From the NCBI RefSeq assembly GCF_016481275.1, contig NZ_JAEMNW010000006.1, positions 62,001 through 126,000 of the forward strand: a DNA stretch of 64,000 bases, given 5' to 3'. Shown piece by piece: positions 13,062 through 34,408 of this stretch. The notes under the pieces are model-generated. The model worked only from the letters and a program-made list of their open reading frames with translations. It was not told where the DNA came from and did not search any database. Both the position numbers and the translations under genes were made by a program. The stretch comes from Antrihabitans auranticaus (lineage in GTDB: Bacteria; Actinomycetota; Actinomycetes; Mycobacteriales; Mycobacteriaceae). Positions within the stretch are counted from its first letter, which is position 1. Each line of letters starts with the position of its first letter.

Positions 13062-13283
13062 GTGGAGGTCCCGCAGTGTTTGGCGGCGCGCGATTCACCA
13101 CCTTCCATTCCTGCTGAATTGAACGCCTTCGTTCCAGAGTTAGGGGAAGAGGACCCTACCAAAGTTAAATCGTTGTCAGAGTTGGCCCGTACAGTTCGCA
13201 ATCGGCGGCTCAATCCGCCGCTTGTTGAACCTGCGATATTGCACATTTTGCATCTGCCGCTTATGGGAGGAAAGTATGAGTAG
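13062..13283 (+). CDS. Small hypothetical protein coupled to DUF6414-like gene
   Basis: The frame ends in TAG at 13281-13283 and overlaps the next start by eight bases, the usual sign of a coupled gene pair. The C-terminal ~60 residues look like genuine protein: PAELNAFVPELGEEDPTKVK, then a basic patch and the phrase LVEPAILHILHLPL. The start is uncertain. I take the GTG near 13062 (73 aa), while the frame stays open to a TTG at 12981. There is no membrane segment or cysteine pair and no recognised family. Its role is probably tied to the downstream gene. Confidence 0.5.
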   Translation: MEVPQCLAARDSPPSIPAELNAFVPELGEEDPTKVKSLSELARTVRNRRLNPPLVEPAILHILHLPLMGGKYE

Positions 13284-14307
13284 GGAAATTAAGCGTAGCG
13301 GGGCATCGCTTCCAACCGTGATTGTTTACCAGAACGCCGATTTCGTTTCGGGAATGTTGCAAGAGATCTATCAGATCGGACTGCTCGAGTCTGCCGAGAT
13401 CGATGTTCAGACGAAGCATTCCGAGACGAAGGGATCGAAGAAGTCGGGTGGCGCCAAAGGTGGCGCGTCGGTCACTGCACCGTTCGTAGGAAAAACAGAC
13501 TTGTCGGCATCCGCTGACTACATCGGCGACCAAGCCCGTTCAGACGAAAACGCGACTGCGGACCGGAAGAAGTTCGTGTATTCGCAGGCATTCTATCTAG
13601 ATCGGGTGCGAGCCGCGCTCCGCAACGGCAGGGTTCACCAGCTCGCATCCGCCGCTGATGCGGACAGCGCGCGAATCGGTTACATCGTCGAGTTTTCCGC
13701 TTCTTTTCGTGCGAACGAGGTGAACGCAATTTTGGACGTCGCGACGCCCGAGCTAACCTCTGCCCTAACTCGTTACATCACCCGACGTTCTGGCACGGAG
13801 GAACTCAGAAGCCTGTCGGCCAACATCGACCACGCCGAAATAGTAAAACTCCGAGCAGTCACTGAGTTGGAAGCATCGGATCGCGCCGAGCTGGCGTCTG
13901 CGGTTACCGCAGCGGTGCGGGCCGATTTTCGTGGCGATCGGACGAAAGAGTTCTACGCCGAAGTCTATGGTGGCGCAGACGGTTTCACTGCCATCACTGT
14001 CTGCGAGGTGGAGTATTTCACCACGCAGGACTCCGACCGACTGCTCGATGGGAAGTTCACTGTACTTGCGAAGGTCATCTCAGAAGTCGAGGTGGATCGG
14101 CCTGTGCTTGGGCGCAACAAGTTACTACACAGATTTGACGTCGACTTCCTCGATCAGACACTCCGCGGCGTGGTCGACAAAACCCGACAGCGCGCCGGTG
14201 GCGCTGACATCGGCAATGGATATACCGGGGAATACTTCGACGCTAGTCTCTCCGCAAAGATTGCTGGACGTTCTCTGATTGTAATGCCGATCGCCATTTA
14301 CGTTTGA
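13276..14307 (+). CDS. DUF6414-like hypothetical protein
   Basis: ATG 13276 is preceded by a strong GGGAGGA RBS. The 343-residue product starts with a short strand-helix (VIVYQNADFVSGMLQEIYQI), then a Gly/Lys/Ser-rich flexible linker (KGSKKSGGAKGGAS, residues ~55-70). A mostly alpha/beta body follows with charged helices, and a hydrophobic C-terminus (SLIVMPIAIYV). The N-terminal sequence followed by a glycine-rich linker is what I recall of DUF6414, a family of unknown function; the assignment is tentative. No signal peptide, no nuclease motif. It is the outermost gene of the accessory island, near defence genes, so a role in phage response is possible but unproven. Confidence 0.65.
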   Translation: MSREIKRSGASLPTVIVYQNADFVSGMLQEIYQIGLLESAEIDVQTKHSETKGSKKSGGAKGGASVTAPFVGKTDLSASADYIGDQARSDENATADRKKFVYSQAFYLDRVRAALRNGRVHQLASAADADSARIGYIVEFSASFRANEVNAILDVATPELTSALTRYITRRSGTEELRSLSANIDHAEIVKLRAVTELEASDRAELASAVTAAVRADFRGDRTKEFYAEVYGGADGFTAITVCEVEYFTTQDSDRLLDGKFTVLAKVISEVEVDRPVLGRNKLLHRFDVDFLDQTLRGVVDKTRQRAGGADIGNGYTGEYFDASLSAKIAGRSLIVMPIAIYV

Positions 14308-14712: not shown

Positions 14713-17028
14713 TCATTCTGGCTGTGCGTGCCGCGTGCACAACCAGGCCGCGATGCGCTGCTCGTAGGTATTCTGGAACTGGAATTCGGCCAATTTGGGT
14801 ATATTCGGGATCACCCCGAGCCCGACTTGCGTAAGCAACTCGCCTAGCATCTCCGAACTTGAAGTCAGCCAACCAATTTGGGATTGAAGACCTTCATCGA
14901 GGGCAGGGTCTCCTTCCGGAGGCGAGATGTCGTGCGGGTTTGCCGCACGCATGATCGCGGCAAGGATCACCGGTTCGTAGAACCGCCCTAGTAGGTATAG
15001 GTGTGGGTCCAGGATCTTCGAGACAGGGGATCTGAACCGCTCGTCCAGATCGCATTCAGCGTCGTCCTCCTCGGGAGACGACGTGCGCAGGCGCTGTATA
15101 CAGGAAGCGATGCACACGAGCAGGTCTACGCCTTGGATGTCGCCGAAGATGCTTTCACGGTTCAGTTCCCACCGATTAGCATGGCGCCCGCCGAATTGCG
15201 CCGCGACGTCTTCCCAAGCCGGCCGCGTGGACGGAAGATCCCACTGTGCTGCAAGGTCCGCTGTAGGCCAGCAGAACATTAAGTGGTCTTGGTCCTCGTC
15301 TTGCAAAGTGTTGCGCCGAGCGGCGATGATGTCGTAATCCTGTAGTTCACTGGGTAATTGGTCGATCATCTCGATCTCACGGCACCAGCTGCAATTGCTT
15401 TGCAGCCAATTCGGCAGGAGCAGCTGTTCGACTTGGAAGAACCGTTTGTGGGTTCCCGTGTGGTGGACGATATCCCTGATGCCGCGCAGGGCGCTGTCGC
15501 TGCGGGGGCGCGCCACCGCGACCAATGCCCACAGATCGACTCGTCCGTCGACACCATGGTCGCGCCGCAGCCGCGTCAGTGCTTTACGGAATGCTTGAAT
15601 GCGGGTCCCCGTGATAACGGCGTCGTCGATGAAGATCACTCGTGGCGCTGCGACTAGCAGCTTCGCAGATGGGTTTCCCCATAAGCACCTTTCGTCGCCT
15701 TGCACCACAGCGCTAACCTCGATGCCCCGGGCGGTCAGTCGCGCCTTAACCATGTCGGCGAAAGCAGCAGCGGCAGTCAGTCCGGGATGTAGCAACAGAA
15801 CTGGCGATTCATCGAGCGCCGCGCACAGTTCGTCGAGTGTGGCTTCAAGCGGGGCTTCGAAGCCGGAGTTGGCAATCATGTTGGCCACGTCGATGAAGAA
15901 CGCGTGATGGCGGCCGTCATCATGGGTTCGATGGGCCCCGAACACGCCATGACCACCGTAGCGGCTAACTACGGCTTTAGCGTCTTTGCTGACATTGACG
16001 GTGATCGCGGTCTTCTTGGTGAGCGCACTAAGGCGGAGAAGGTAGGACCCCTGCTCGATCGGCACTGCGAAGTTCACCGGGTGTTTGGCACATTCCGGGC
16101 AAGGAGTAGGCAGCCTTCGGTGTGTGTCGTCTAGTGGAGCTAGAAATGCGATGTCGGTTGGCATGGGATCAGTTGGCGCCTGTGCGATCGCGACGACCTT
16201 GGCTCGCCATTGCCCGATGTCGTTCAGCACTGCGGCAATTCGTTGCGCCGAACTGCCAGTGCTGCTGACCGAGAGCAGCACGACGACGCCGCTGTCGCTT
16301 GGGGACGGAAATGCCCGCCACAGGCGCGCGGTCAGTGATTCCGATCCCTCAGCGTATTCGGTCAGCGATTCGATGGTGACAGGATGTTGGGGTTCGCCGA
16401 AGCGCGCGGCGTATGCCGCCGCCCGATGCGCCAGACCGAGCATGGACCAGTGATCGACGACAACGCGCGATTTGCCGTGTAGGTGGGGCACCAGCCAGAA
16501 AGCGACCCTGTCAAAGTCGTCTGTGGTGCGCATCGCGAAGCCGGGCCGAGCGAAGGATCGGTAGTGGTGGCCACCCGGGCCCTTATAGTGGAGGGTCCTG
16601 AACGGCGGCAAGTTAGCGCCGGGCCGGCGCAGGAGGGCGTTGATGTCGGCCTCGCGAAGGGCCGCCAGAAACTTGTCGATGTCCAAGCCGTTCACGACCT
16701 CGCCCGAGATGTACTGCAGTCGGGGTCCAAGAGAATCGGTGGACAACACGTACAGCGGGCTGCGTTCGGTTCGTTCGGCGACGTCAGTGAGAACGTCTTC
16801 AGGAATGTGCCCGCTCACGTCATGTGTTCGAAGTACGGTGATGTCGTTGATCAGCGACCACTTCGGGGATGCGACCTGCAGCACGTTGTCGATTGCAAAG
16901 GGCGCCATATTCTGTGGCTGGGTGGCGAACAGCACCTGGCCGAGTTCGCGAATGCCCGGCGGCGTGGGGGTGCGGATGCTCTCGGGTGCTTCGTCGCTTC
17001 TGGCGAGGTTAACGACGTGAACCCGCAA
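14713..17028 (-). CDS. Two-domain phosphoribosyltransferase-like protein, partner of GHKL ATPase
   Basis: The 771-residue product contains a canonical type I PRTase PRPP-loop VIFIDDAVITGTRI, with acidic pair D468-D469. A second, degenerate loop VVLLSVSSTGSSAQ lies at ~250-262, so two PRTase folds appear to be joined. CxxC pairs occur at C310/C313 (CPEC) and C546/C549 (CSWC), possibly zinc-binding. The N-terminal ~200 residues and the helical C-terminal ~200 match nothing I know. The TTG start at 17026-17028 has AGGAG seven bases upstream and lies inside the end of the GHKL gene (20-base overlap), so the two are translationally coupled. The likely reaction is transfer or release of a PRPP-linked base; its substrate is unknown. 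Confidence 0.75.
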   Translation of the reverse strand: MRVHVVNLARSDEAPESIRTPTPPGIRELGQVLFATQPQNMAPFAIDNVLQVASPKWSLINDITVLRTHDVSGHIPEDVLTDVAERTERSPLYVLSTDSLGPRLQYISGEVVNGLDIDKFLAALREADINALLRRPGANLPPFRTLHYKGPGGHHYRSFARPGFAMRTTDDFDRVAFWLVPHLHGKSRVVVDHWSMLGLAHRAAAYAARFGEPQHPVTIESLTEYAEGSESLTARLWRAFPSPSDSGVVVLLSVSSTGSSAQRIAAVLNDIGQWRAKVVAIAQAPTDPMPTDIAFLAPLDDTHRRLPTPCPECAKHPVNFAVPIEQGSYLLRLSALTKKTAITVNVSKDAKAVVSRYGGHGVFGAHRTHDDGRHHAFFIDVANMIANSGFEAPLEATLDELCAALDESPVLLLHPGLTAAAAFADMVKARLTARGIEVSAVVQGDERCLWGNPSAKLLVAAPRVIFIDDAVITGTRIQAFRKALTRLRRDHGVDGRVDLWALVAVARPRSDSALRGIRDIVHHTGTHKRFFQVEQLLLPNWLQSNCSWCREIEMIDQLPSELQDYDIIAARRNTLQDEDQDHLMFCWPTADLAAQWDLPSTRPAWEDVAAQFGGRHANRWELNRESIFGDIQGVDLLVCIASCIQRLRTSSPEEDDAECDLDERFRSPVSKILDPHLYLLGRFYEPVILAAIMRAANPHDISPPEGDPALDEGLQSQIGWLTSSSEMLGELLTQVGLGVIPNIPKLAEFQFQNTYEQRIAAWLCTRHAQPE

Positions 17029-18286
17029 GCGCCAACTCCTGTCCTGTGCCTTCTCCCTCTGCGCGGCCTATCAGCGCATCATCCATTGGAAAGATGATCG
17101 TCCACGTGGTGCCGGCGACCATCTGACGTTGAGAAACATGCTGGTCTACGTCGAACGCAGCGTCCCTGCCGTCCAAGAAATCGAACTGACCCGGCCGACC
17201 TCGCTCATCGAGGAACGTGCGCGACAACTCAAAGCGTCCGGTTCTCAAAACGAACATGCCGCGTAGGCCATGGCATGCCCGCAGCATCTTGCGTACACCA
17301 TGCCCGACGCCTATCTCACCAGCAGACTTACTAGTACCGCGGGGTAACAACGCGGTGGCGAGAAACTCCAACTCGGCTGTTGTTTCGATTTCTTCGTACG
17401 GCGCCAAGCCCCGCGCCATAGTTCCGACCATGCCAAGCCCGCCGTCGGCGACGGTGATCTCCACGAGTTTGGAGACGTTCAACTTGCGCCGCTGGATCGC
17501 GTAGTGGCGTTGTAATCTGTCCAGGTAGTCGTCGAGGACCGTCTGCTGACCAGAACTGGAGTCGGCGACGACGCGGGGCTGCACTTCGGTGAGGTTGTGT
17601 CTGGCGAGGTCAAGGATCCTGAGCGAGGGTATTGGGTTCCGATTTAGATCGTATCGACCGTGATCGAAGGTATTCTCCATCGCCTCGAAGACAAAGCTAA
17701 AGACGAGGTCGAACCACCACTTCGCCCACGGTGCGGGATCCGAATTCACCCCACGTACGAGTCGGGCGATGCTCGCCTCGACGTTGCGGACCCGACTGCT
17801 GATCGCTGTGTTGTGTTCACGTCGATCACCGATGGTAGGAATCGCGATGGCTCGATTGCGGCCGTGGCCGTAATGGTAGGAGTTGCCCTTTAATGAGTTC
17901 CGCTGCCACTTGCGTAGCGTCTCTGAGTCGAGGTGCGCGGTGGGTTGCAGCTGGCACAACTGGCCGAGAATTAAACCTTCCAGGGTGGTCGCCAAAACGC
18001 TTTCGGCCGGTGTGATCTGCTTGGGTGTGTCGGCGACGGAGAACGCCGCACCGGCGCGCTCACCCGCAAGGGTGTTTTCGGGTACTGATAAAGAGCACTC
18101 GATGCCCTTCCTAGCGAGCAAACATAACGCCGCTTGTAGGTGCGCGGCGCCCATTGGATCGGCGGCTGTGCCGTGCTGGCCCAGGTGCAGATCGCCCCGG
18201 CCGGCCTCCAGCACGGTGGTCAGCCACGCATCGATGTCAGAAACGCGCAAGTGGCGCGGGAGCACCCATTTTGGTGTCGTAGACAC
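17009..18286 (-). CDS. GHKL (HATPase) protein with STAS-like N-terminus
   Basis: The 425-residue product has the Bergerat ATP-binding fold: N-box E201-N205 in FEAMENTFDHG, D281 in VADGGLGM, and a glycine box GVGHGVRKM at ~326-334. There is no DHp His-containing domain, so it is not an ordinary sensor kinase. The first ~100 residues alternate strand and helix like the STAS-like segment in front of some stand-alone GHKL ATPases. GTG 18284-18286 with GGGGA upstream is preferred to the much longer open frame. It is the first gene of a two-gene unit with the PRTase protein and divergent from the Mokosh-like genes. An ATP-driven switch controlling the PRTase is inferred. Confidence 0.75.
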   Translation of the reverse strand: MSTTPKWVLPRHLRVSDIDAWLTTVLEAGRGDLHLGQHGTAADPMGAAHLQAALCLLARKGIECSLSVPENTLAGERAGAAFSVADTPKQITPAESVLATTLEGLILGQLCQLQPTAHLDSETLRKWQRNSLKGNSYHYGHGRNRAIAIPTIGDRREHNTAISSRVRNVEASIARLVRGVNSDPAPWAKWWFDLVFSFVFEAMENTFDHGRYDLNRNPIPSLRILDLARHNLTEVQPRVVADSSSGQQTVLDDYLDRLQRHYAIQRRKLNVSKLVEITVADGGLGMVGTMARGLAPYEEIETTAELEFLATALLPRGTSKSAGEIGVGHGVRKMLRACHGLRGMFVLRTGRFELSRTFLDERGRPGQFDFLDGRDAAFDVDQHVSQRQMVAGTTWTIIFPMDDALIGRAEGEGTGQELALAGSRR

Positions 18287-19391
18287 GTTGTCCCCGCTAT
18301 CGTCCTTGCGCGCTCGCCAGGGCGCGGATGCTATCGGTATATGTCGGCGCCATCGATGGTAACTTGTCTGCCACCCGCTAGGCATACGTAACGCAGGACG
18401 CCGCTGACCGCGATGCATGTTCCGACCGAAATTGAGGTGCGGCGCAGACGACCGTCAACTGCCCTTTGTGAGCCGTCGTTACAGCCCCCAGTACTGAAGA
18501 CGCCCTGCCTTCTGGGCTCACAATAGGGGCACTCCTTCTGCTGGCCACGAGCGGCGGTCCGGCAAGTCTTAAAGCTTGGACCCGATGCCCCCGATGCTCT
18601 CGACGCGAGGCCCAAGGTGCCAGTCGGCATCTGTGTGGTCTCTCGCTGCACCCGAACAGCTACAGGTCTGTCAAAACTTGACGTCCGGCGGCTCGGTCCT
18701 TGCGATCCTTCCTCACGGGCTGTTGTCGGGCAGGCAGACGACGGTGGTGAAAAGTCGAATTGTCAGCAGGGCGGACGGATGCAATCCGCTCCCATGCCCT
18801 CTACAGCCGCATCAACTGAAGTCCGTAGTTCGCGGACGGGTAACCCGTCAAGTGCAGCAGCAGCTTTGATCGACAAGCCGCGAAGGTAGGTTCGGAAATA
18901 ATTACCGTTTTGGGAATCGCAAATCAGTGTCACGTCCTGCGGCAGGTGCGATGCGACGCATGAATGCTGCGCCGATCATGGCAGGGTGAAAAGTGAGTAG
19001 CTGAATCGCACACGCGAAGTCCACGAGAGGATCACCTCCGGCACCATGTCGTTGGCGTCGACCCGGCAACGCAGTCGATACGCATGCGCGACCTAAGCTC
19101 ACTCAATCTCTGCGAGACTAGGTCCAAGTCGGAGACCACGACAGGAGTGTTCGTGCAGGTGCATTCGCTGGGGCAGATCAATGGAGGGCCTGGGCGTACA
19201 ACACATTGTGTAGGCAGCTTCGTCAAACAGGCGCCGATTCTGGGCCGCAAGCTCCGCTCGGCACCGCCGAGCAGACAAGATTCCTTGAGTGAGAAGCACG
19301 CGCGGCGCAGCAAACACGTCGGATTCAGAATCTGGGCGGTTCTTGATTGGGTAGCGTTTCTTCGCGACGGCGTTCCGCAGTGGGAGAGTTT
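18287..19391. other. Divergent intergenic region, 1105 bases
   Basis: The region separates the GHKL and kinase-helicase genes and must hold both promoters. Short ORFs here (for example 18576-18869 and 19084-19395) have poor composition and no RBS, so I do not call them. It may carry decayed sequence or an unrecognised RNA; I see no clear structure. Confidence 0.5.
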
Positions 19392-22300
19392 GTGAGTGAA
19401 ATAGTAGACAACCGTTTCGCCCTGCTGAAGTCCGCCGAGCGCGAGGGTGCGGGTGGTCAAGTCGTGCGCGCTGTCGATATCGAAAATAACGGGGCCAAGG
19501 TAGCTATTAAGTTCATCAAAGGTCACCGTGATGACCCAACAACGAGAATGTTATTTGAACGCGAGACCCAGTCTCTCACACGACTCGACCACCCGAACAT
19601 CGTCAGGTTTATTGACGCGGGTTGGCACGAGGAGCGCGGACAGTTCTACTTGGTGCTGGATTGGGTCGAGCGCGACATGCACACGCTTCTGAAATCACCA
19701 GATTGGGCCGACTGGGATGATTTCTCGGAACGATACGCGATTCCTCTGCTGGCAGGATTGGCACACGCGCATCTAAAGGAAGTCATTCACCGCGACATAA
19801 AACCGCTTAACGTGCTCGTCGACGATGCCGGAAATCCAATGCTGGCAGATTTTGGCGTCGCGAAGCTTCGGGATAAGGTCGAGACCCTCGGGCAGACGAT
19901 GTTCGGGTGGCACACGAGACCGTACTCGCCCCCCGACGCTTGTGTGGGATACGAGTACACGCGCGATGTTTGGGCTATGGCGGTAGTTTTTATTGAAGCT
20001 ATGTCGTCCGAGCCGCTACTGGACTATCCGGAAATCGATCCACGGATTTCCGAGATTAAGGTGCCACCTGCCGTACGGTCGCTCCTGGAAGCATGCGTTA
20101 ACAGCGAAGCCTCGTTGCGTCCTAGCAACGGCGCTGTCTTTTTGCAGCAGCTCGAAGAGATTCAGGCAAAACGCCGGGCGAGGCGACTCCAGGCTGATGC
20201 AACGCTTTGGCTGGATCTCAGCAGGCGCGCAGCCAGTGAGATCAGTTCTGGCGACGAAGACGCAAAAGTAGCAGCATCGAGGGACCTCGTAACGCAATGT
20301 AGAGCCGAGTACCGGTTCGACGCCGCAAGCGCGAAGCTGGATCGCGAAACGGTTTATCTATGGGGTGCTACACGCCGCTACATTGCTAAGCATGACCGGC
20401 GGATCAATGCCTTTAGAGTGACCAGTGCAGCCACCTATGAGCTATTTGACAGTCGACGAAATAGCACATGCGCGGTCGAGCATTTGCTGACAATATCCTT
20501 CAGTAATCCAGGAAAGACAAAGGCTGAGGCTGGAGCTAAAATGTTAGTCGCGGCGCTCGAGGGGCACTACGATAATTCCACTCATCTGAGCGACCAAGAG
20601 GAAGATTCCAAGTCCTCGACAGTCCTGCTGGACCGATATCTAGATCTACTCTACGCGCGCGAGGAACTGGAGCGCGGCGACCGCAAGCCAATTCAGTTTG
20701 GCTCTATCTCGATTTTACGAAGCGACGTCACTTTTTCGTTATCCGAGCCCCTGAACCTTGATTGCCTGGGGCAGGAGTGGGAAATCAGAATCGGGCGGGG
20801 ACGGTCGTTCGGTCGCGGCGAGGTCGTGGCGCAGAAGGGCGAATCGCTAACACTGAGGTTCGGGCGAATACCAAAGACGATTCCGAAAAACGGTGAGCTA
20901 ACACCGTTCCTCGGACCCACACAACGAGCACACGAACGACAGGTAGATGCTGTAGCCAGTATCAGAGACGGATCTATTCCCCGACCGGATTTGCGCACAT
21001 TCGTATCGGATCCGTCGAGTGTGCGAATCCCGGTGTTGAAATACCCCAAAGAGTGGGTGCGTTCCGATCTGGACGAGAGTAAGCGAAATGCGGTGGCGGC
21101 AGCATTAGGCACAAGCGACTTCTTGGTAATTGAAGGCCCGCCCGGAACGGGCAAGACTAGCTTCATCACCGAGTTGGTTGCGCAGACAATTATTGAAAAC
21201 CCTGAAGCTAAGATATTGATCGTAAGCCAGACCCATGTCGCGGTGGATAATGCGTTAGAGAGGCTCGTATCTGCCGGTCTCAAGAACATTATTCGTCTAA
21301 GCAAGCCAGAAGATCCTAAAGTTGCGGCCTCCGTACAACATCTGATTCTCGATCGTCAGATGGCTGAATGGGCCAAGGGTGTGGAGCAAAAGGCAGAGGC
21401 TAGGATTGCGAGCCTCGCCGTGGAACAAGGCATGCCGCTCCGCCATCTACGGGCGGCGCTCGCATTGCAGAAACTGGCGGTTGTTCTCGGCGACCTTCAG
21501 CACATCGAAGCGAGGCAGCGCCGGGGCCTAGATCCTGACACCTTGCGGTCCGAAACTGTGAATGGCCTTGAGCAGCTTCGCGATCGAGAGGAAATGCAGG
21601 ATCGACTAGAGTTGCTCAGATCTCAATCGCGTGAGTTACTGGTCGAGGCAATACAGTACGCCGGCGATGATCTACCAATCAACGAGGACATTGATCGTGA
21701 AGGTGCACAGATCGCGGTTGAACTTCTCCTAGGAACCGGAGATTACTCAAAGCGGTTACTTGCCTTGGTCGCTCTGCAGGGGGAGTGGTTGCAAAGAGTC
21801 GCGACCGACCAAAATCTCGTGAACGCATTCTTAGACACGGGTAGCGTCCTCGCCGGAACGTGCGTGGGATTCTTGGGCCACCGCGCGGTCAAGGATCTCG
21901 AATTTGATCTCTGCATACTCGACGAGGCATCCAAGGCAACCGCCACCGAAGCGCTCGTACCCTTGGCACGCGCCAAGAAATGGGTGTTAGTAGGCGATGT
22001 TTGCCAACTCCCACCGCTCGACGAAGAACTATTGCGCAACAGAACAATCATGGGTCGATATAGTCTCGATGAAGAATTTGTCAAGGAAACTCTGTTCGAG
22101 CGCTTCGTTGAGAAGACAAGCACTTCTGTTCGACATTTGCTACGTGAACAGTATCGGATGATTAGACCAATTGGTGATCTTATCTCGACGACCTTCTATG
22201 ATGGTGCGCTCGTGTCTCCGAAGAAGGACTCAGTGCCTGGAATTGATCGGCTCGGAAAGCCGGTTCTCTGGATCAGCACGTCCGGATTGGGGCGCGATCG

Positions 22301-22781
22301 CTTCGAAGGGGCTAGTTCCCCTGGTGTTACAAGCCATTTGAACAGGACCGAATCGAAACTGTGCATGCAGCGTTTGACAACAATTGATCGAGCTATCGAA
22401 AAAGGGCTTGTAAATCCGCGAGATCGCCGTCTCTCCGTTCTGCTTATTGCACCTTATCTCTTACAAATGGAAGAACTGGAACGGCATCTATCCTATGTCG
22501 ACCTGACGCATTTGGATGTCACGGTACAGAGTGTTGACGCAGTTCAAGGACGAGAAGCGGATCTCACTGTCTTCTCCATTACTAGAAGTAACGTCAAGGG
22601 TGAGCTGGGTTTCTTGAGGCAACAGTATTGGCGCCGCATTAATGTCGCGCTATCTCGCGCGCGCTACGGACTGACGCTAATTGGTGATTTAGAGTTTTGC
22701 GTTGGGCAACCAGGCGCGTTGCGAGATGTTGCGCTCTATATGAGACAGAAGGCAGAGGATTGCGAGGTACGTGATGCATAG
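19392..22781 (+). CDS. mkoA: Ser/Thr kinase-SF1 helicase fusion, MkoA-like (Mokosh type I)
   Basis: The 1129-residue product has an N-terminal protein kinase: glycine loop, K40 in VAIKFIK, catalytic D135 in IHRDIKPLNVL, and D153 in ADFGVAK. A ~250-residue linker follows. Then comes a COG1112/Upf1-like SF1 helicase: GPPGTGKT 582-589, DEAS from D844, REQYRM, QGREADL, and motif VI RINVALSRARYG at ~1082-1093. This kinase-helicase fusion followed by a PLD-like gene is the defining arrangement of the type I Mokosh anti-phage family. GTG 19392 is chosen for the GGGAG five bases before. The codons (many AGA, ATA, TTA) and lower GC differ from the core genes, suggesting transfer. It overlaps the next gene by eight bases. 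Confidence 0.85.
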   Translation: MSEIVDNRFALLKSAEREGAGGQVVRAVDIENNGAKVAIKFIKGHRDDPTTRMLFERETQSLTRLDHPNIVRFIDAGWHEERGQFYLVLDWVERDMHTLLKSPDWADWDDFSERYAIPLLAGLAHAHLKEVIHRDIKPLNVLVDDAGNPMLADFGVAKLRDKVETLGQTMFGWHTRPYSPPDACVGYEYTRDVWAMAVVFIEAMSSEPLLDYPEIDPRISEIKVPPAVRSLLEACVNSEASLRPSNGAVFLQQLEEIQAKRRARRLQADATLWLDLSRRAASEISSGDEDAKVAASRDLVTQCRAEYRFDAASAKLDRETVYLWGATRRYIAKHDRRINAFRVTSAATYELFDSRRNSTCAVEHLLTISFSNPGKTKAEAGAKMLVAALEGHYDNSTHLSDQEEDSKSSTVLLDRYLDLLYAREELERGDRKPIQFGSISILRSDVTFSLSEPLNLDCLGQEWEIRIGRGRSFGRGEVVAQKGESLTLRFGRIPKTIPKNGELTPFLGPTQRAHERQVDAVASIRDGSIPRPDLRTFVSDPSSVRIPVLKYPKEWVRSDLDESKRNAVAAALGTSDFLVIEGPPGTGKTSFITELVAQTIIENPEAKILIVSQTHVAVDNALERLVSAGLKNIIRLSKPEDPKVAASVQHLILDRQMAEWAKGVEQKAEARIASLAVEQGMPLRHLRAALALQKLAVVLGDLQHIEARQRRGLDPDTLRSETVNGLEQLRDREEMQDRLELLRSQSRELLVEAIQYAGDDLPINEDIDREGAQIAVELLLGTGDYSKRLLALVALQGEWLQRVATDQNLVNAFLDTGSVLAGTCVGFLGHRAVKDLEFDLCILDEASKATATEALVPLARAKKWVLVGDVCQLPPLDEELLRNRTIMGRYSLDEEFVKETLFERFVEKTSTSVRHLLREQYRMIRPIGDLISTTFYDGALVSPKKDSVPGIDRLGKPVLWISTSGLGRDRFEGASSPGVTSHLNRTESKLCMQRLTTIDRAIEKGLVNPRDRRLSVLLIAPYLLQMEELERHLSYVDLTHLDVTVQSVDAVQGREADLTVFSITRSNVKGELGFLRQQYWRRINVALSRARYGLTLIGDLEFCVGQPGALRDVALYMRQKAEDCEVRDA

Positions 22782-24186
22782 CGCATTTGACCCGGCGATC
22801 CTGCTTGCCGAGAAATATAGGTCTGAGCGACCAGGGCTAACGCTCATTTCAGTCGAGGACGCAGCGGTCCCTGTTAGTTGGATTGCGGTCGATGTGCTCG
22901 CTCAGGAACGTAAACGGTTACCGCTGTTGGACGAGTTCGTCCTCCGCTCGATAAATGAAGGCCTCGATTCCGACGTGGAGATTGCCCAGCTTTTGGGTCT
23001 CAAGGTCGCGATAATTCAAAGGACCATCGCGGAGCAGATGGGACGCGACTTAGTAAGCCGACGACTGACAGTCGGCGGTAATTGGAAGCTTGCGCTCACG
23101 CCGCAAGGGCAAAGCACTGCGTCAGATTTGGCGTCAGTTTCGCCGCGGAGTCTGTCGCTCGGTTATGCCTTCGACCGGTTAGGCTGGTGCGCGACTGCTT
23201 TTCGGCGAAGCGCCTTGATTGGTAAGGACGAGGTCCGGAGTCGAGGGGTCCGCAAACTCTTAGGAAGGCCGGGAGACGTGTCGGTCGACGACGTTACGTC
23301 GGTGGCGTTGAACAACTTGCTCGACGACCGCGACGAAGAAAAACCTCGAATCGAAATTATTAGCGTGAAGAAGGTTGTCGTCAAGGCGAGACTCTTTTTG
23401 CCAGTTGCATTAATTGCCTTCGCGGACGAGAACGGCAAAGAGGTTCAAACAGCGATCTGCATTGATGGTGAACTGAGTGGTCAGCACGAACTTGAATTGA
23501 ATAAGTTGGGCGGTGCGGAGGCGGTAGGGATAACGATGAATCAAGAATTTGCGGCTGACCGGGTTAGGCGGCCCTCTAGTTCGTTCGCAACAACTTCACT
23601 CAGTAAAGTTGAGGTCCTGCGATCGGCTGTAGTTCGCACGCGTGTCGCGCAGTTCGAAGGGAGACAAGTAGATTCCGGATGGATTGAGTCTGCTGAGCAA
23701 GCCGAGTTGGCTTTGTCGAATTTTCAATCGCGACCTGTTGATCGATTTGAGTATCGCGAATTACTGGTTGGTTCCCTTGAAAAGACGCGGCGCCGCCTTG
23801 TTATTTTCTCTCCCGTAATTCGAAGCGCGACTGTCGACGGCATGTTCGTGGATCGGCTAGGGAGACTAATGCAATCTGGCGTCTCGGTCCACATCGGTTA
23901 TGGGAAGGATAGGGACACCAGAAAATCGGATGCGTCGGCGATACATTCCCTACACGAGATCGGCAGGAAGCATCGTGATCTATTCAGGCTGTCGCAGTTC
24001 GAAGAGATTGACGAACCAGTGCTTGTCAGTGACGAGGTACTGATTATGAGTGATTTTCATTGGCTTTCGTTCAAAGGGGACCACGATCGCCCGTATCAAC
24101 TGCCGACGGGATTCATCGTTCGGTCACAAGAGGCGTCGGACAACGAGTGCTCGCGCCTGTCTGCACTCGATGTGAGCGGTCGGTAG
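22774..24186 (+). CDS. mkoB: PLD-like protein with N-terminal winged helix, MkoB-like
   Basis: The 470-residue product starts eight bases inside the preceding gene. The N-terminal ~110 residues include a helix-turn-helix-like region (DSDVEIAQLLGLKVAIIQRT). The C-terminal ~170 form a single phospholipase-D-like domain: RLVIFSPVI, MFVDRLGRLM, VHIGYG, then EPVLVSDEVLIMSDFHWLSF. In active PLD nucleases this last stretch begins HxKxxxxD; here the H and K positions are D413 and P415, and only D420 is kept. The fold and operon position identify it as the Mokosh partner, but the catalytic pair seems lost, unless my alignment is off. It may bind nucleic acid rather than cut it. Confidence 0.75.
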   Translation: MHSAFDPAILLAEKYRSERPGLTLISVEDAAVPVSWIAVDVLAQERKRLPLLDEFVLRSINEGLDSDVEIAQLLGLKVAIIQRTIAEQMGRDLVSRRLTVGGNWKLALTPQGQSTASDLASVSPRSLSLGYAFDRLGWCATAFRRSALIGKDEVRSRGVRKLLGRPGDVSVDDVTSVALNNLLDDRDEEKPRIEIISVKKVVVKARLFLPVALIAFADENGKEVQTAICIDGELSGQHELELNKLGGAEAVGITMNQEFAADRVRRPSSSFATTSLSKVEVLRSAVVRTRVAQFEGRQVDSGWIESAEQAELALSNFQSRPVDRFEYRELLVGSLEKTRRRLVIFSPVIRSATVDGMFVDRLGRLMQSGVSVHIGYGKDRDTRKSDASAIHSLHEIGRKHRDLFRLSQFEEIDEPVLVSDEVLIMSDFHWLSFKGDHDRPYQLPTGFIVRSQEASDNECSRLSALDVSGR

Positions 24187-24850: not shown

Positions 24851-27800
24851 TCATCGAACGCCTCCCCAGCTCCAGCCAGGCAACGCCTCCAAACTTGTTC
24901 TCCGGGCCGCCGATAGGTTATTCATCTCGGCCCGCTGCTCTCGGACCCAACCTCCGAGTTTGATTCCGTCCTCGACGTACCCAGCAGGCACTCGGGCATG
25001 CCCCTCACGTTCGACGAACCGTTTGAGAATCTCGAATTTCTGATTCCAGACGTAATCAGCTTTACGCCCCCAGAACCAGCCGGGAATCGCCTCAAGGAGT
25101 GCCTGCCTCTCCGCACTGAGCTTCTTATGCTCACGTCGTCGGAGCCTGGACCACTGCCCGACTTTGAGATCGTCCTCGATGTAATCCACTGGGACATTTG
25201 TGTGACCTTCCCTTGCGGCGTACGAGCGCAGCAAGTCAAGGTGCCGCATCCATGAGTCTTCTACCGCGTTCCAGCTCCATCCGGGCAGGGCCTCTAGACG
25301 CTGCCGCCGTTCCGCCGTCATCGTTGAGCGGCTGGCGCGTTGCTCTCCCACCCAACCGCCGAGGTTGATCCCACCGACCAGGAAGTCTCCGGCGACTCTT
25401 GCATGCCCCCGATGCTCGGCGAATGCCGCAAGCGCCGCATATCCGCGTTCCCACGACTCAGTGTGCGGGTCCCATGACCATCCGGGAACAGACTCCATTA
25501 ATGCCCGGCGCTCGGAGCTCATGTCTGCGCGGTTGCCGCGTTGCTCTCGAACCCAGCTCCCTAAATTGACTCCGTCTTCCTTGTATCCCTGCGGCACTAG
25601 GGCATGCCCTTCTCGCGCCTGGAACTGCCGGAGGAGAGCAAATTTTTGATGCCACATGTCAGAACGGGCATCCCAAACCCAGCCTGGAAGCGACTGGAGC
25701 CGTTCACGTTGACTGTCGGGCAGTTTGCCTAGCTTGACCCGTTGATCGTTCACCCACTGACCTAGCCGAAATCCGCCTTCCAAATGTTTGGTTGGGACGC
25801 GGGCGTGACCTTCCCGTTTGACGAAAGCCCTCAAAAATCCGTAACCGCGTTCCCAGCCGTCGGTCGTTGGATCCCACGACCATCCCGGCAGAGCTTCCAG
25901 TAGAGCCTTCCGCTCCGGCGACATCTCGTCGCGGTGGGTGCGCTGTACTGTCACCCACTGCCCGAGTTTCAAACCGTCCTCGACGTACCGTTGCGGGGCG
26001 CGGGCGTGCCCCTCTCGTTCCGCGAACTTCTTTAGCCCGTTGTAGTGCCGGGACCAGTTGTCCTCCGGGACGTCCCACACCCAGCCCGGCAGTGCCTCGA
26101 GCTCTCGGACCCGCTCCTCAGGCAACTCTCCGCGCTTGTACAAACCACGCTGCGTGGCGAGCCAGCTCCGGAGGTTGTACTCGCCGACCACGTACGGGAA
26201 AGGCACATTGGCATGACCATGCTCGGCGACGAACTCGTGCATGAGACCCGTCCACGTACTCCACTGGTCAGCCAGGACATCCCAGGTCCAGCCGGGCAGA
26301 CTCTCCAGCTTGCCACGCCGGTCGCTGCTCAGCGTGTTGTTCGCGTACAGGCTGCGGTGCACACTTGCCCACTGTCCGAGCGAGTATCCGTCCATGACGC
26401 AATCGACGGCCACCCGTGCCGTGCCGTTGTTGTCGGCGTACCGCTCAAGGAGCCCATACCAGAAATCCCAACGGGCACTGGTCTTTTCGACCAGGCGCAC
26501 GTCGAAGGCGTCGGTGAACGCCTTGCCGACAGAGCGCGCTACGTCTAGGTGAATCTTGTCCGGAATCCGTGTGCGCCCGCCCTTGCGTCCGAGTTCCTGG
26601 CGGAAGGTGTCTATCTGCTCCGCGAGCTCCTCGTCGTGGGCGCGGAGGGCTTTGATCACGCGCCATACCGCCTTGAAGGACGAGTCGTTGAGAGCGGTGT
26701 CGGGGTCCGTCTCGGTGTCGATGAACACCGGAATGACGATGGTTCCGAAGGTCTTGTTCTCAGTCAACCGGATTGCCCGCCCGACAGCCTGAACGATGTC
26801 CACCTCAGAACCGCGAGGGTCAATGAATGCCACGCCGTCGAGAGTCGGAACATCGACGCCCTCACTGAGACACCGGGCATTGGTCAGCAGACCGCGCTCG
26901 CCATCGTCGAGCTGGCGCAGCCGCTGGAGCAGGACATGGCGCTCGCCAGCAGACATCTCTCCGGAAGCGAACCCGGTCCAAAGCGGTCCCGATGGGCGCT
27001 GCTGAGCTGGCATCCATTTGAGGACATCGGGCATATCGGAGGCGAATTTTCTAGCGCGCTGAACACGGGAATGGAAGCTGATGACCCGGTGAAGGTCGTA
27101 CTTCCGCATCGCCTTCGCCAACCCGATCTGGCTGGCCAGAGTTCGAGCGTCGGTGGGCTTATCGTCTCGCCGCACCAGGACACCCCTCGTCGCCCAATCG
27201 CGGTAGGTCGCATCGTCAACACCGACGATGGCTACCTGGTAGTCGGTAAGCAGTCCCCGGCGGATGGCTTCACCGAAACTCAGACGGTGGAACACCTCCC
27301 CGAACTTAGCGGGGTCGTCCATGGACGCGACTTCCATATCAGATCCCCGCGCTGCGTCGACCACCCGTCCGGTGTAGTAGCGCGGCGTCGCCGTCATGAA
27401 CAATCGCCGCCGCGCCTTGATGGCGCCAGCATCGAGAATGGTTGCAAAGATGGTCGATTCGTCTCCGGCGACCCGGTGACTCTCGTCGGCGATTGCCAAG
27501 TCGAACTGCGGAACCCGTCCCAGAGCGTAGGCTCGCGCAATCTGTGGGGAGGACTGGTAGGTGGAGAACACCACGCGGGGTCCGCGCCGTCGCAGAAAGG
27601 CGGCAATTTCGGCAGGGTCGGTGGTGACCGGGACACACAACTCGCTGACGTGGGCGATCGCCGTGTCGTCCTGGGAGACCGTCTCGTCGGAGCAGACCGG
27701 AAGAGAGTCGAACGGTTCCTTGATGTTCGCCCTCCAGACCGCCATCGTCTGCTTCAGCAGCGACAGTGAAGGCAGCAGGACCAAGGTTCGCTGTGCATCC

Positions 27801-28408
27801 AGCTGCTCGTTGATGAACAGCGAAGTGAGGGTCTTTCCTGTACCGCAGGCCATGATGAGTTGGCCACGGTCGGCGCATTGGAACCCCTCCACGACTTTGC
27901 CGATCGCTTCGTCCTGGTAGTCGTGGGGCGTGGCAGGGTTCGGTCGCTCAATGGGGTGCAGTCGGTCCGGGGACTCCGGCCAATCGAGGTCAGCGGTGAG
28001 CAGATCCGCTAGGCCGAGGAACCCGACTTTTTTCTCCTGGGCGTCGATTGTGTGCTGGGCAACCGAGTGCAGCCGGTCCGTCGTGGCGATGAGTAGCCGG
28101 TAGCTGAACCACTTCCTCGACGATTCCGAGAGGAATTTGTCCACGTCCTTCTTCGTGACGGCGCGGTCCGGGTCGTAGGCCTTCGCCTGCACAGCCCATA
28201 GCTGTCCGTCGCGGTCTTCGACGACGAGGTCGATACCGGCGTCTGCGCCCCACCTGTGCTCCCAATCATCCCAGAGCCAGACCTTACGAACGGTGTCTCG
28301 GTAGTACGGGTCGTTCTCCAAGTACCACTTGCAGATGCGCTCGAACTGCTTGCCCCGCAGGTAATTATCCGCGGAGAGGTTGCTGTACAGGGTGGTGAAT
28401 TTGCCCAT
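24851..28408 (-). CDS. Mrr-like nuclease-SF2 helicase with eight helicase-associated (HA) repeats
   Basis: The 1185-residue product has an N-terminal restriction-endonuclease-like domain: D60 in GIDLVVED and Q74-x-K76 in WAVQAKAY, a PD-(D/E)xK pattern. A DEAD/DEAH-type SF2 helicase follows: ACGTGKT with K192, DESH 308-311, MTATPRYY, and QAVGRAIR. Then come eight HA repeats of ~67 residues, each ending like LEALPGWSWD. This resembles a type I/III restriction translocase subunit, with the repeats as a DNA-binding arm. Start ATG 28408 follows AGGAA; an in-frame ATG at 28441 is an alternative. The gene follows the methyltransferase after ~90 bases on the same strand, so a restriction role is inferred. 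Confidence 0.8.
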   Translation of the reverse strand: MGKFTTLYSNLSADNYLRGKQFERICKWYLENDPYYRDTVRKVWLWDDWEHRWGADAGIDLVVEDRDGQLWAVQAKAYDPDRAVTKKDVDKFLSESSRKWFSYRLLIATTDRLHSVAQHTIDAQEKKVGFLGLADLLTADLDWPESPDRLHPIERPNPATPHDYQDEAIGKVVEGFQCADRGQLIMACGTGKTLTSLFINEQLDAQRTLVLLPSLSLLKQTMAVWRANIKEPFDSLPVCSDETVSQDDTAIAHVSELCVPVTTDPAEIAAFLRRRGPRVVFSTYQSSPQIARAYALGRVPQFDLAIADESHRVAGDESTIFATILDAGAIKARRRLFMTATPRYYTGRVVDAARGSDMEVASMDDPAKFGEVFHRLSFGEAIRRGLLTDYQVAIVGVDDATYRDWATRGVLVRRDDKPTDARTLASQIGLAKAMRKYDLHRVISFHSRVQRARKFASDMPDVLKWMPAQQRPSGPLWTGFASGEMSAGERHVLLQRLRQLDDGERGLLTNARCLSEGVDVPTLDGVAFIDPRGSEVDIVQAVGRAIRLTENKTFGTIVIPVFIDTETDPDTALNDSSFKAVWRVIKALRAHDEELAEQIDTFRQELGRKGGRTRIPDKIHLDVARSVGKAFTDAFDVRLVEKTSARWDFWYGLLERYADNNGTARVAVDCVMDGYSLGQWASVHRSLYANNTLSSDRRGKLESLPGWTWDVLADQWSTWTGLMHEFVAEHGHANVPFPYVVGEYNLRSWLATQRGLYKRGELPEERVRELEALPGWVWDVPEDNWSRHYNGLKKFAEREGHARAPQRYVEDGLKLGQWVTVQRTHRDEMSPERKALLEALPGWSWDPTTDGWERGYGFLRAFVKREGHARVPTKHLEGGFRLGQWVNDQRVKLGKLPDSQRERLQSLPGWVWDARSDMWHQKFALLRQFQAREGHALVPQGYKEDGVNLGSWVREQRGNRADMSSERRALMESVPGWSWDPHTESWERGYAALAAFAEHRGHARVAGDFLVGGINLGGWVGEQRASRSTMTAERRQRLEALPGWSWNAVEDSWMRHLDLLRSYAAREGHTNVPVDYIEDDLKVGQWSRLRRREHKKLSAERQALLEAIPGWFWGRKADYVWNQKFEILKRFVEREGHARVPAGYVEDGIKLGGWVREQRAEMNNLSAARRTSLEALPGWSWGGVR
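24863..26476 (-). repeat. Array coding for eight HA repeats
   Basis: The 3' half of the helicase gene consists of eight diverged in-frame repeats of about 200 bases. Each codes for a tryptophan at the start, a GHARVP-like centre, LGQWV or a close variant, and an LPGW-W end. The units are related at the protein level but not identical at the DNA level, so the duplications are old. Confidence 0.8.
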
Positions 28409-28497
28409 TGTGAAGGTATTCCTTTGCAAGTTTGTGGTCATGTCGTGTGCCGAGTTGTGCGCTAAGGGTTCTGCAGATGTTGACGACGGCGTGAGTG

Positions 28498-30591: not shown

Positions 30592-30599
30592 GGCGCTCC

Positions 30600-31136
30600 C
30601 TACGCAGTCGACGCGGCTGGGAGCGTGGTGACGCGGTGTGCAGCAAGTCGTAGGCACGCCGCAATGCTGTTTTGACGCGCAACCAGATGCGTTGTGGTGC
30701 CCGAGGCGGCCAGGTACGCCAGATCCGTGTCGAACCCGCCATCGCCAGAGCCGATGTAGACCAGGTCGAATCGTTCCGGGATGCGCTCGGAGTGGATTGC
30801 GTCGTGAATGGCGATGTCGGCGCCGTTGACTCCGGAACGCGGGGTGAGCAGGCGAGCGCCTGGCCAGGCGTTGCCGGCGGCGATCGCGTTGTGGTGCGAG
30901 GTTCCGATGATGACGTGATCGCCGGCCGCGATGCAGACGGCGGCGTGGTAGTCACGCATCGCAAGTTTGGCTTCGCAGATCCGGATTGAGGATGTGCCGC
31001 AAAGGTTCTCGATATCTATGAAGTGAACTGCTCGGCACCGGAGTTGCGCGGGGGCGAGAGTCGGAACTTTTGCGAGCGCACGCGCGGGGGCCGCGTGGGC
31101 GAGCAGTGCGAGTGCTTCGGCTGACCTAGCGACCAT
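30600..31136 (-). CDS. NYN-domain (PIN-like) putative ribonuclease
   Basis: The 178-residue product has the acidic signature of NYN nucleases: D in HFIDIENLCG, D in GVNGADIAIHDAI, and DGGFD in LVYIGSGDGGFDTDL. NYN proteins use these residues to bind a metal and usually cut RNA. The first ~40 residues are an Ala-rich helix. ATG 31134-31136 is preceded by AGGAG; the longer open frame crosses the promoter and is rejected. Its stop is eight bases before the methyltransferase start, so it is the first gene of a three-gene operon with a restriction-like pair, which is unusual. It may be an effector or regulator in that system. Confidence 0.8.
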   Translation of the reverse strand: MVARSAEALALLAHAAPARALAKVPTLAPAQLRCRAVHFIDIENLCGTSSIRICEAKLAMRDYHAAVCIAAGDHVIIGTSHHNAIAAGNAWPGARLLTPRSGVNGADIAIHDAIHSERIPERFDLVYIGSGDGGFDTDLAYLAASGTTTHLVARQNSIAACLRLAAHRVTTLPAASTA

Positions 31137-31909
31137 GGCGTGCTCCTCTGTTCTTGGGTTGCGGTAAATGTAACCGACGGGAGTCTTGATGGCAAGGGTA
31201 ACCGTGTTAACCACACTTTCGCGACGGTTGTTAACAGCTACGCCGATTGGCCATAGGCGAAAGGTGGGGGCAATTGCTGATTTCAGCGGCTCAGAGATTT
31301 TCTGGCGCCTGCCGTCTGGTGAAACGTCTGTCGCTGGTCGGCAGGAACCGTGCGTCGGTGCCAGCCCGCGGCAGCGACCGCGGCTCGTCGACTTGGTGTA
31401 TCCGAGTGCACAGAGCCTGGTCGTAGCGTGCGTACTTTCGGTCGAGTAAGGGGCTGACAATCCCAATCATCGAAGCGCTGCGACCGGGCCGCGTTTGATC
31501 CCCCGCGTTGTTGAATACCGAGGATGGCGCATCGTGCCACCTCGCCGCGCGTGATGCCGCGCGATATTCGCATCAGACTCGTCGAAGAGCTACAGCGGGC
31601 GTCACAACTTCAGGATGAGATCGCCCATACTCCACCACGTTGAGGTGTCGGCGGAGTAGGAATGCGTCGATATCATGGGGTGCGGTGCGGCCGATCGCGG
31701 TATGTCCGGCCTTCCCGCAAACCAAATCTCAATTTAGCCAGTCATCAGTTGGCAGGCGCCAACGTCCAATGTGTGTCACGTGACGTTCCGTCGACCAAAT
31801 CGCTAGCAATGTGGGCGCCGTCCCAAGATTTTGCAAAAGCCCAGGTTGTTGTCCCAACATCCCAACAATGTGCGCCCCTGTCCCAACATTTGCCGCGAGC
31901 GGCACTCGC
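31137..31909. other. Intergenic, 773 bases
   Basis: The region lies between the NYN operon and the end of dnaB. It contains the NYN promoter and paired GTTAAC sites near 31200. A short ORF at 31524-31643 (39 aa, basic and helical) has no RBS, so it is not called. Beyond that I see only GC-neutral sequence with no clear RNA gene or attachment site. Confidence 0.5.
31167..31235 (-). promoter_or_regulatory. Promoter and operator-like repeats of the NYN operon
   Basis: On the minus strand TTGCCA (31195-31190) and TACATT (31172-31167) are 17 bases apart, about 31 bases before the start codon. Upstream, two palindromic GTTAAC hexamers (31206-31211 and 31230-31235) are set 24 bases apart, each touching an ACCGT or ACGGT run. 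The paired spacing suggests a dimeric repressor or activator site. Confidence 0.5.
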
Positions 31910-34189: not shown

Positions 34190-34408
34190 GCGACCGTCCA
34201 CCTCTCTGTCGGAGAAACACCGGCACCGGTAAGCGCTGTTACCGAGACGCTGTCAACACACACATCTGCGCCGAGTTACTCGGCGATCCTGCTCGAACGC
34301 TAGTTCTACCCCGACGCACCGACATCTCAGCTCTGGCAACCTTGGCAGAGGGAATTTCGCGATGCTGAGAAGACCCTAAGGACGTTTTCAGATCGGTACA
34401 AATGAACC

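What the first reader, a model, noticed from the sequence alone, without database searches (positions are those of the whole stretch)
14713..18286. Uncharacterised GHKL ATPase plus double-PRTase gene pair in a defence island
Two overlapping genes encode a stand-alone GHKL ATPase (N205, DGGLG, GHG boxes) and a 771-residue protein with one intact and one degenerate PRPP loop plus two CxxC pairs. They stand head-to-head with a Mokosh-like system. I know no named defence system with this composition. The PRTase could make or destroy a nucleotide-like signal or deplete a metabolite on infection, with the ATPase as switch. The function is inferred only.
Basis: partly seen in the sequence, partly recalled or inferred. 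Interest (0 to 1): 0.75.

Follow-up and report, generated by a model that had tools for sequence, protein, structure and literature searches.

The report
Divergent PDC-M65 ATPase–PRTase gene pair
Two overlapping bacterial genes, an ATPase-like protein and a larger protein with a nucleotide-binding type of fold, form a rare accessory unit that a defence catalogue already lists in related form as an untested anti-virus candidate.

Summary
A GHKL-type ATPase (17009-18286, -) overlaps by 20 bases a 771-aa protein (14713-17028, -) with two PRPP-loop-like segments and two CxxC pairs, divergent from a Mokosh operon. The pair is not uncatalogued: PADLOC's two-gene candidate PDC-M65 matches both proteins (A 2.1e-12, B only 8.2e-5). 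I collected 20 loci, window included, with the GHKL gene directly upstream of the B gene. Neighbours include Avs1, Qat, HsdR, a Piwi gene and a STAND gene, but about half of the plasmid loci show none. The pair was not detected in 350 other genomes of its family, so it is accessory. Two revisions: the first loop, called degenerate, is the conserved one (S253, D192 18/18), whereas the acidic PRPP loop (D468/D469) occurs only here and on Cupriavidus pHG1 (2/18). PRPP-loop catalysis therefore cannot be the shared mechanism. I favour a phosphoribosyl- or nucleotide-sensing PRTase-fold protein gated by a GHKL ATPase; in the window/pHG1 type, site 2 may also be catalytic. Domain 2 models as a PRTase fold; domain 1 remains uncertain. 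Mechanism is inferred; no phage test was possible.

The parts
17009..18286 (-). M65A-like stand-alone GHKL ATPase (longest ORF to 18418; GTG start at 18286 preferred)
   Evidence: PADLOC PDC-M65A 2.1e-12; E245, N249, D325, G327, G329, G372, G374, G436, P444 in 18/18 rows
14713..17028 (-). M65B-like protein with PRTase-type domain(s), 771 aa, overlapping the ATPase gene by 20 bases
   Evidence: PADLOC PDC-M65B 8.2e-5; tblastn to the pHG1 protein 3e-11 over residues 76-564; alignment with 17 relatives
16243..16284 (-). Loop 1 of M65B, VVLLSVSSTGSSAQ (residues 249-262): conserved Ser loop, not acidic
   Evidence: S253 18/18, S or T at 255 18/18, G258 16/18
15589..15642 (-). Loop 2 of M65B, RVIFIDDAVITGTRIQAF (residues 463-480): acidic PRPP-type loop
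   Evidence: Two acids in 2 of 18 rows (window, pHG1); A, S, G, T or P elsewhere; lies in the better-modelled part, residues 381-540
16090..16101 (-). CxxC pair 1 (C310, C313)
   Evidence: Cys at both positions in 11 of 18 rows
15382..15393 (-). CxxC pair 2 (C546, C549)
   Evidence: 2 of 18 rows: window and pHG1 only
19347..22781 (+). Neighbour: MkoA-like kinase-helicase (Mokosh), divergent
   Evidence: PADLOC MkoA 1.6e-205
22771..24186 (+). Neighbour: MkoB-like protein
   Evidence: PADLOC MkoB 3.2e-54

Best explanation
The pair is a divergent actinobacterial member or close sister of the PDC-M65 type of two-gene candidate anti-phage module (kinship about 0.85; anti-phage role about 0.7; mechanism about 0.35). 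Proposed mechanism: M65B is a tandem PRTase-fold protein whose conserved first site (strand then D192, and the Ser loop around S253) binds a phosphoribosyl-type ligand such as PRPP, a nucleoside monophosphate or (p)ppGpp without an acidic PRPP loop. A shift in that ligand during infection is relayed to the ATP-dependent dimer of the GHKL protein M65A, which switches the complex, through the conserved C-terminal helical part of M65B (R648, R682, R694), into a growth-arresting or phage-blocking state. In the window/pHG1 type the second domain keeps D468/D469 and may in addition catalyse a PRPP-dependent reaction. Shown: gene pair, conservation, sporadic distribution, a PRTase-like model for domain 2. 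Inferred: ligand, relay, dimer, output.
For: PDC-M65A/B matches; B proteins of three other loci match M65B strongly (P0011 2.2e-108 over 1-748, P0012 4.7e-62, P0014 5.3e-51). GHKL gene directly upstream of M65B in 20 loci, window included, found from either gene (from A; 23/26, 67/68/70-79 and 85/87 from B); gap -23 to +7 nt in 12 of 13 measured, 90 nt in the other. ATPase boxes 18/18 while loop 2 acids are missing in 16/18 and D192, S253, R648, R682, R694 are 18/18: selection kept the ATPase and site 1, not an acidic PRPP loop. The model of P0001 matches OPRT, APRT, HGPRT and PyrR at Foldseek probability 0.99-1.00, TM by target 0.40-0.65. Domains 1 and 2 align above 30 column-shuffled controls (score 26.3 against 8.4-12.8). 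Sporadic: 1 of 351 family genomes, 1 of 396 phylum genomes, both the window's own; 5 of 398 genomes around Vibrio sinus at phylum level. Defence neighbours: Mokosh, Avs1, Qat, HsdR, Piwi, STAND, TIR.
Against: No phage assay. The M65B match of the window protein is weak (19 bits) and partial. The model is poor overall (pLDDT 51.0, pTM 0.37); no PDB match passes 1e-3, ranks 1-3 are not PRTases, and the output gives no ranges, so that the PRTase matches lie on domain 2 is inferred. Domain 1 matches mix PRTases with SIS sugar isomerases and others. The column shuffles also destroy secondary-structure pattern, so one search does not exclude a merely similar alpha/beta fold. Pfam puts neither window protein in a family; HATPase_c reaches 4 of 16 relatives, best 0.0058; PRTase_2 1 of 15 at 0.29. 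Defence-named neighbours by the strict count are 2 of 10 plasmid loci against 0 of 10 controls, which is not significant. Ligand and output are guesses.
Confidence: 0.4

Rival explanations
1. M65B of this type is a working PRTase effector: once released by the GHKL switch it uses PRPP at the D468/D469 site to modify or deplete a base, a nucleotide or PRPP itself and so starves the phage.
For: DD loop with PRPP-type spacing in the window and pHG1; model consistent with a type I PRTase fold; weak NCBIfam match to adenine PRTase PRK07322 over 437-486 (0.0023, 17.4 bits against a cut-off of 143); thyX beside three related loci and dgt beside one.
Against: 16 of 18 rows lack the acids, so it could hold only for this type; the site for a base was not examined.
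Confidence: 0.2
2. Guard or backup of restriction or other defence systems: the pair senses inactivation of a neighbouring system and then arrests growth.
For: HsdR lies 54 nt upstream on the same strand in L025; Piwi and type IIG genes near L024; restriction-type genes in the window.
Against: No constant partner system: neighbours are Mokosh, Avs1, Qat, restriction, Piwi or nothing named.
Confidence: 0.12
3. Metabolic regulator, for example a PurR- or PyrR-like PRPP sensor controlling nucleotide supply, carried by chance in islands and on plasmids.
For: PyrR and PurR chains occur among fold matches, PurR only at probability 0.16-0.44; thyX next to the pair in one Rhizobiaceae clade of 3 loci.
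Against: Not detected in 350 of 351 family genomes; variable setting; no constant metabolic neighbour among the loci looked at.
Confidence: 0.15
4. Domain 1 is not a PRTase but another phosphosugar-binding Rossmann-like fold such as SIS, so the protein is a hybrid and not a double PRTase.
For: SIS-type isomerases are among domain 1 and whole-model matches; loop 1 is Ser-rich and by my reading one residue shorter than a PRPP loop.
Against: Domain 1 aligns with domain 2 above shuffled controls; the best domain 1 match is HP1257 (record says hypothetical protein; from memory an orotate PRTase), with PyrR and HGPRT in the list.
Confidence: 0.2

Closest known systems
PADLOC PDC-M65 (PDLC04764 M65A + PDLC04765 M65B), phage defence candidate
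   Same: Two adjacent genes, GHKL-like then about 750-aa protein; both models match the window proteins; ATPase boxes, D192/S253 site and C-terminal arginines shared.
   Different: In the M65B tree window and pHG1 group apart (100/99, but both are long branches); window M65B is 14-18% identical to the rows other than pHG1; acidic PRPP loop and second CxxC that the others lack; PADLOC match of window M65B is only 19 bits.
Cupriavidus necator H16 pHG1 pair H16_RS32265/H16_RS35355
   Same: Same gene order, both loops, two acids in loop 2, two CxxC pairs; near Avs1.
   Different: 20-29% identity of M65B depending on alignment; different neighbour system and phylum; its M65B gives no PADLOC match.
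Type I phosphoribosyltransferases (OPRT, APRT, HGPRT, PyrR; PurR)
   Same: Modelled fold of domain 2; PRPP-type loop in this type.
   Different: Long N- and C-terminal parts and a second, uncertain domain; site 1 lacks acids; 16 of 18 rows lack them in site 2 too.
Pfam PRTase-CE (PF24390)
   Same: Weak match at residues 463-516 around loop 2 (E 0.062).
   Different: 13.6 bits against a cut-off of 27: not a member by that test.
VcSduA, Shedu with N-terminal GHKL ATPase (PMC12137116, passages seen)
   Same: GHKL ATPase proposed to control a defence effector.
   Different: Fused to a PD-(D/E)xK nuclease; no PRTase part described in the passages.

Membership tests
PADLOC PDC-M65 | M65A model match | tested here: met
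   E 2.1e-12, 44.6 bits, residues 192-446
PADLOC PDC-M65 | M65B model match | tested here: inconclusive
   E 8.2e-5, 19 bits, best stretch 146-226; PADLOC's own thresholds and coverage rules not applied
PADLOC PDC-M65 | Two genes adjacent, A before B | tested here: met
   20-base overlap
PADLOC PDC-M65 | Shown anti-phage activity | not testable with these tools
   The name is in 0 papers of the held library
GHKL ATPase superfamily | N box E..N, G1 box DxGxG, G2 box GxG | tested here: met
   18/18 rows; box names recalled
GHKL ATPase superfamily | Pfam HATPase_c match of the window protein | tested here: not met
   No Pfam family for P0002 up to E 1; 4 of 16 relatives match, best 0.0058
Type I PRTase | PRTase fold, domain 2 | tested here: met
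   Residues 381-540 have block pLDDT 55-92, 11 of 16 blocks at 70 or more; PRTase matches at probability 0.99-1.00 but E above 1e-3 and no ranges shown
Type I PRTase | PRTase fold, domain 1 | tested here: inconclusive
   pLDDT 47.4 model, mixed matches
Type I PRTase | Acidic PRPP loop | tested here: met
   D468/D469 in loop 2 of the window; 2 of 18 rows; not in loop 1
Type I PRTase | PRPP-dependent catalysis | not testable with these tools
   Needs an enzyme assay
Pfam PRTase-CE PF24390 | Gathering score 27 | tested here: not met
   13.6 bits

The most novel reading that the evidence does not exclude
PDC-M65 is a new kind of immune machine in which a stand-alone GHKL ATPase gates a tandem PRTase-fold protein that reads, and in the window/pHG1 type also makes or consumes, a phosphoribosyl nucleotide signal, linking phage-driven nucleotide or PRPP change to defence.
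Probability: 0.25. Interest if true: 0.8.

Novelty: new variant of a known kind. Interest (0 to 1): 0.5.

Why it matters
In the library searched here PDC-M65 is only a name and two profile models. Evidence that its B protein has a PRTase-type part with a conserved non-acidic first site, that a divergent type kept an acidic PRPP loop, and that the ATPase boxes are intact in all 18 aligned rows turns an anonymous candidate into a testable nucleotide-sensing or nucleotide-consuming system, with named residues and a tractable host (C. necator H16) for the test.

Tried and rejected
Relatives close by: 1 of 61 with P0002 and 1 of 351 with A1, both the window itself; PDLC04764 in 0 of 5 genomes reached through loci. 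Plasmid tblastn with P0002 gave none, with P0001, P0007 and P0008 only the two records of C. necator H16 pHG1; phage records with P0001 none. Genome-contig scan with P0002: 14 stretches, none related. Viral scans with A1 and A2: 49 and 115 stretches, none related; with A5 the same three contigs as before. Pattern scan for CxWCR[ED]...: 4 viral and 10 genome stretches; none of the motif ORFs I read (8 printed besides pHG1) looks related, tblastn with four family proteins gave nothing below 0.075, and the later profiles found no match in the 10 genome stretches (the 4 viral ones were not in that set). PDB sequence search: no match for either protein at E up to 1.

Rejected readings: zinc site common to the family (CxxC 1 in 11 of 18, CxxC 2 in 2 of 18); core or housekeeping locus; constant partner system (neighbours vary); acidic-loop PRTase catalysis as the shared mechanism (2 of 18).

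Rows dropped before counts: the 18-row M65B set omits L024 (gene broken in two frames) and L042 (near copy of L029); the 18-row M65A set omits L043 (broken in two frames) and L042. L039 (Caballeronia) is a short 3' remnant without an annotated GHKL gene and is not among the 20 loci. In L035 the B protein is annotated as two overlapping CDS; only the larger was aligned. The defence control used 10 of 11 plasmid pair records (L038, a 28-kb plasmid, left out). Neighbours of L026, L027, L042 and L043 were scanned in part or not at all.
Full report
WHAT IS THERE. The two ORFs are as described. The 771-aa ORF (14713-17028, minus strand) starts at TTG behind AGGAG, 20 bases inside the end of the upstream ORF (17009-18418), whose likely start is GTG at 18286 behind GGGGA. 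Composition here is about 57-61% GC against 63-65% further left. The divergent neighbour is a Mokosh-type operon (MkoA 1.6e-205, MkoB 3.2e-54), followed by an Mrr/helicase protein with eight helicase-associated repeats and an N6-methylase and then dnaB. In three genomes of the same genus dnaB is conserved (76-79% DNA identity) but the adjoining 16 kb have no blastn match to the window at 1e-5 beyond one of 69 bases. The region is therefore variable in the genus; I did not find its borders, and the genes left of the pair match elsewhere in those genomes.

WHAT IT IS. PADLOC's two-gene candidate PDC-M65 matches the ATPase at 2.1e-12 and the larger protein at 8.2e-5. Neither protein reaches a curated Pfam or NCBIfam cut-off. 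tblastn on plasmids found one relative of the larger protein, in two records of Cupriavidus necator H16 megaplasmid pHG1 (25.3% identity, 3e-11), with a GHKL gene directly upstream and Avs1 nearby. The M65A profile matched 5 of 398 genomes sampled at phylum level around Vibrio sinus, so presumably Pseudomonadota; in all five a B gene follows directly (in L024 it is broken in two frames). Two of these B proteins as plasmid queries gave 11 records each, the same 11: ten are pairs, nine in Pseudomonadota and one in Spirosoma, and one is a 3' remnant without an annotated GHKL gene. A motif scan of viral contigs gave five stretches, three of them pairs: L043 has its ATPase gene broken, L042 carries a GHKL protein 100% identical to that of Pantoea L029, and in L044 a STAND-type NTPase gene follows. 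In all, 20 loci with A directly upstream of B, counting the window and the near copy L042. Gaps are -23 to +7 nt in 12 of 13 measured and 90 nt in one.

CONSERVATION (18 rows each). ATPase: E245, N249, D325, G327, G329, G372, G374, G436, P444 are 18/18. B protein: F159, D192, S253, R648, R682, R694 are 18/18; G258 16/18; CxxC 1 in 11; CxxC 2 in 2. Loop 2 has two acids only in the window and pHG1; the other 16 have Ala, Ser, Gly, Thr or Pro there. In the B tree window and pHG1 group at 100/99, but both are long branches (2.76 and 3.68 changes per column). In the A tree the join is 89/80 and flagged as a possible long-branch artefact, and the window ATPase is most identical to L037 (22%). That the two form one clade is thus likely, not certain.

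FOLD. AlphaFold2 with four rows gave a poor whole model (pLDDT 51.0, pTM 0.37), but residues 381-540 have block means of 55-92, 11 of 16 blocks at 70 or more. Foldseek lists OPRT, APRT, HGPRT and PyrR chains at probability 0.99-1.00 and TM by target 0.40-0.65; no match passes E 1e-3, ranks 1-3 are not PRTases (rmsd 21.8-23.3), and no ranges are printed, so that these matches lie on domain 2 is my inference from confidence and length. Domain 1, modelled from the viral relative L043, is worse (pLDDT 47.4, pTM 0.46); its best match is HP1257 (probability 0.85, E 7.9e-3), with SIS isomerases, methyltransferases, PyrR and HGPRT mixed below. Profile alignment of domain 1 with domain 2 gives score 26.3 (P 0.0017, probability 15.6%) against 8.4-12.8 in 30 column shuffles. 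This is weak evidence for a tandem repeat, since such shuffles also destroy secondary-structure pattern. Pfam on 15 relatives gave single weak matches only, among them PRTase_2 in one at 0.29.

SETTING. Neighbours seen: Mokosh and restriction-type genes (window), Avs1 (L003), Qat (L034), HsdR 54 nt upstream plus NERD-UvrD (L025), Piwi and type IIG (L024), STAND NTPase (L044), TIR proteins and dgt (L031), ThiF genes (L031, L033 with multiubiquitin, and L035 with nucleases), methylase-HNH and a DUF3584 protein (L028), a TraG/TraD-type protein (L026). As a control, ten of the eleven plasmid pair records were read in an 18-kb window on the far side of the circle: defence-named genes in 0 of 10 (judged by eye from annotation). 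The pair's own windows in those ten (about 18 kb, 25 kb for L003) show named anti-phage genes in 2 (Avs1, Qat) or, counting TIR, ThiF and nuclease genes, a class I drew up after seeing them, in 5. By hand, Fisher one-sided is about 0.016 for the lenient and 0.24 for the strict count. L029, L030, L032, L036 and L037 show none. thyX lies upstream of the pair on the same strand in three Rhizobiaceae plasmids, but these are one clade (100/100), so one event; the proteins carry RHRMANVNEYSARYS, one residue off the ThyX motif as I recalled it (0 of 3 exact).

DISTRIBUTION. Own family 1 of 351 with A1, phylum sample 1 of 396 with the M65A profile, both the window's genome; 5 of 398 in the other phylum sample. 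The first two samples may overlap, and the profile may miss divergent members (pHG1 ATPase only 9.2e-6, pHG1 B protein none). The pair looks accessory and sporadic.

MECHANISM. See best explanation. The key inference is from what was kept: all ATPase boxes, one non-acidic site and a C-terminal part with three invariant arginines, but not the PRPP acids. PurR, a PRTase-fold regulator with structures bound to ppGpp and cPRPP (titles seen, at low match probability), is a precedent for such a fold as a sensor. DefensePredictor (PMC13092281; passages seen) names a thymidylate synthase among newly validated defence domains and mentions a PRTase in a figure legend; whether that PRTase is related I could not tell. 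Searches for GHKL with PRTase in defence (listings only, capped) showed no paper on this pair, and the name PDC-M65 is in 0 papers of the held library, which lacks bioRxiv. The preprint that I believe introduced the PDC names (cited in PMC13092281 as 10.1101/2024.01.29.577857) was not read.

Noticed in passing
31910-34201 (-): dnaB ORF of 763 aa with the DnaB_C match in two stretches (residues 522-758 best), longer than usual: possible intein; the same-genus genome G003 matches it in two separate pieces.
   Followed up: no
24851-31466 (-): Mrr nuclease-ResIII helicase with eight helicase-associated repeats, an N6-methylase (28498-30657) and an unassigned 288-aa ORF: looks like a restriction-modification set beside Mokosh.
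   Followed up: partly
13222-14307 (+): DUF6414 protein (8.6e-8) next to the pair, in the lower-GC stretch.
   Followed up: no
L044 1462-8156 (-): M65 pair followed directly by a 1074-aa STAND-type NTPase in a viral contig; possible three-gene form.
   Followed up: no
L031, L033, L036 upstream of the pair: thyX upstream of the pair in one Rhizobiaceae clade; dgt beside L031.
   Followed up: partly
L024 9796-18654 (-): Piwi-domain gene next to a type IIG-like restriction gene and a MobA relaxase on a 21-kb contig that also carries an M65 pair with a broken B gene.
   Followed up: no
L028 10884-12632 (-): Predicted methyltransferase joined to an HNH endonuclease domain directly upstream of an M65 pair.
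   Followed up: no
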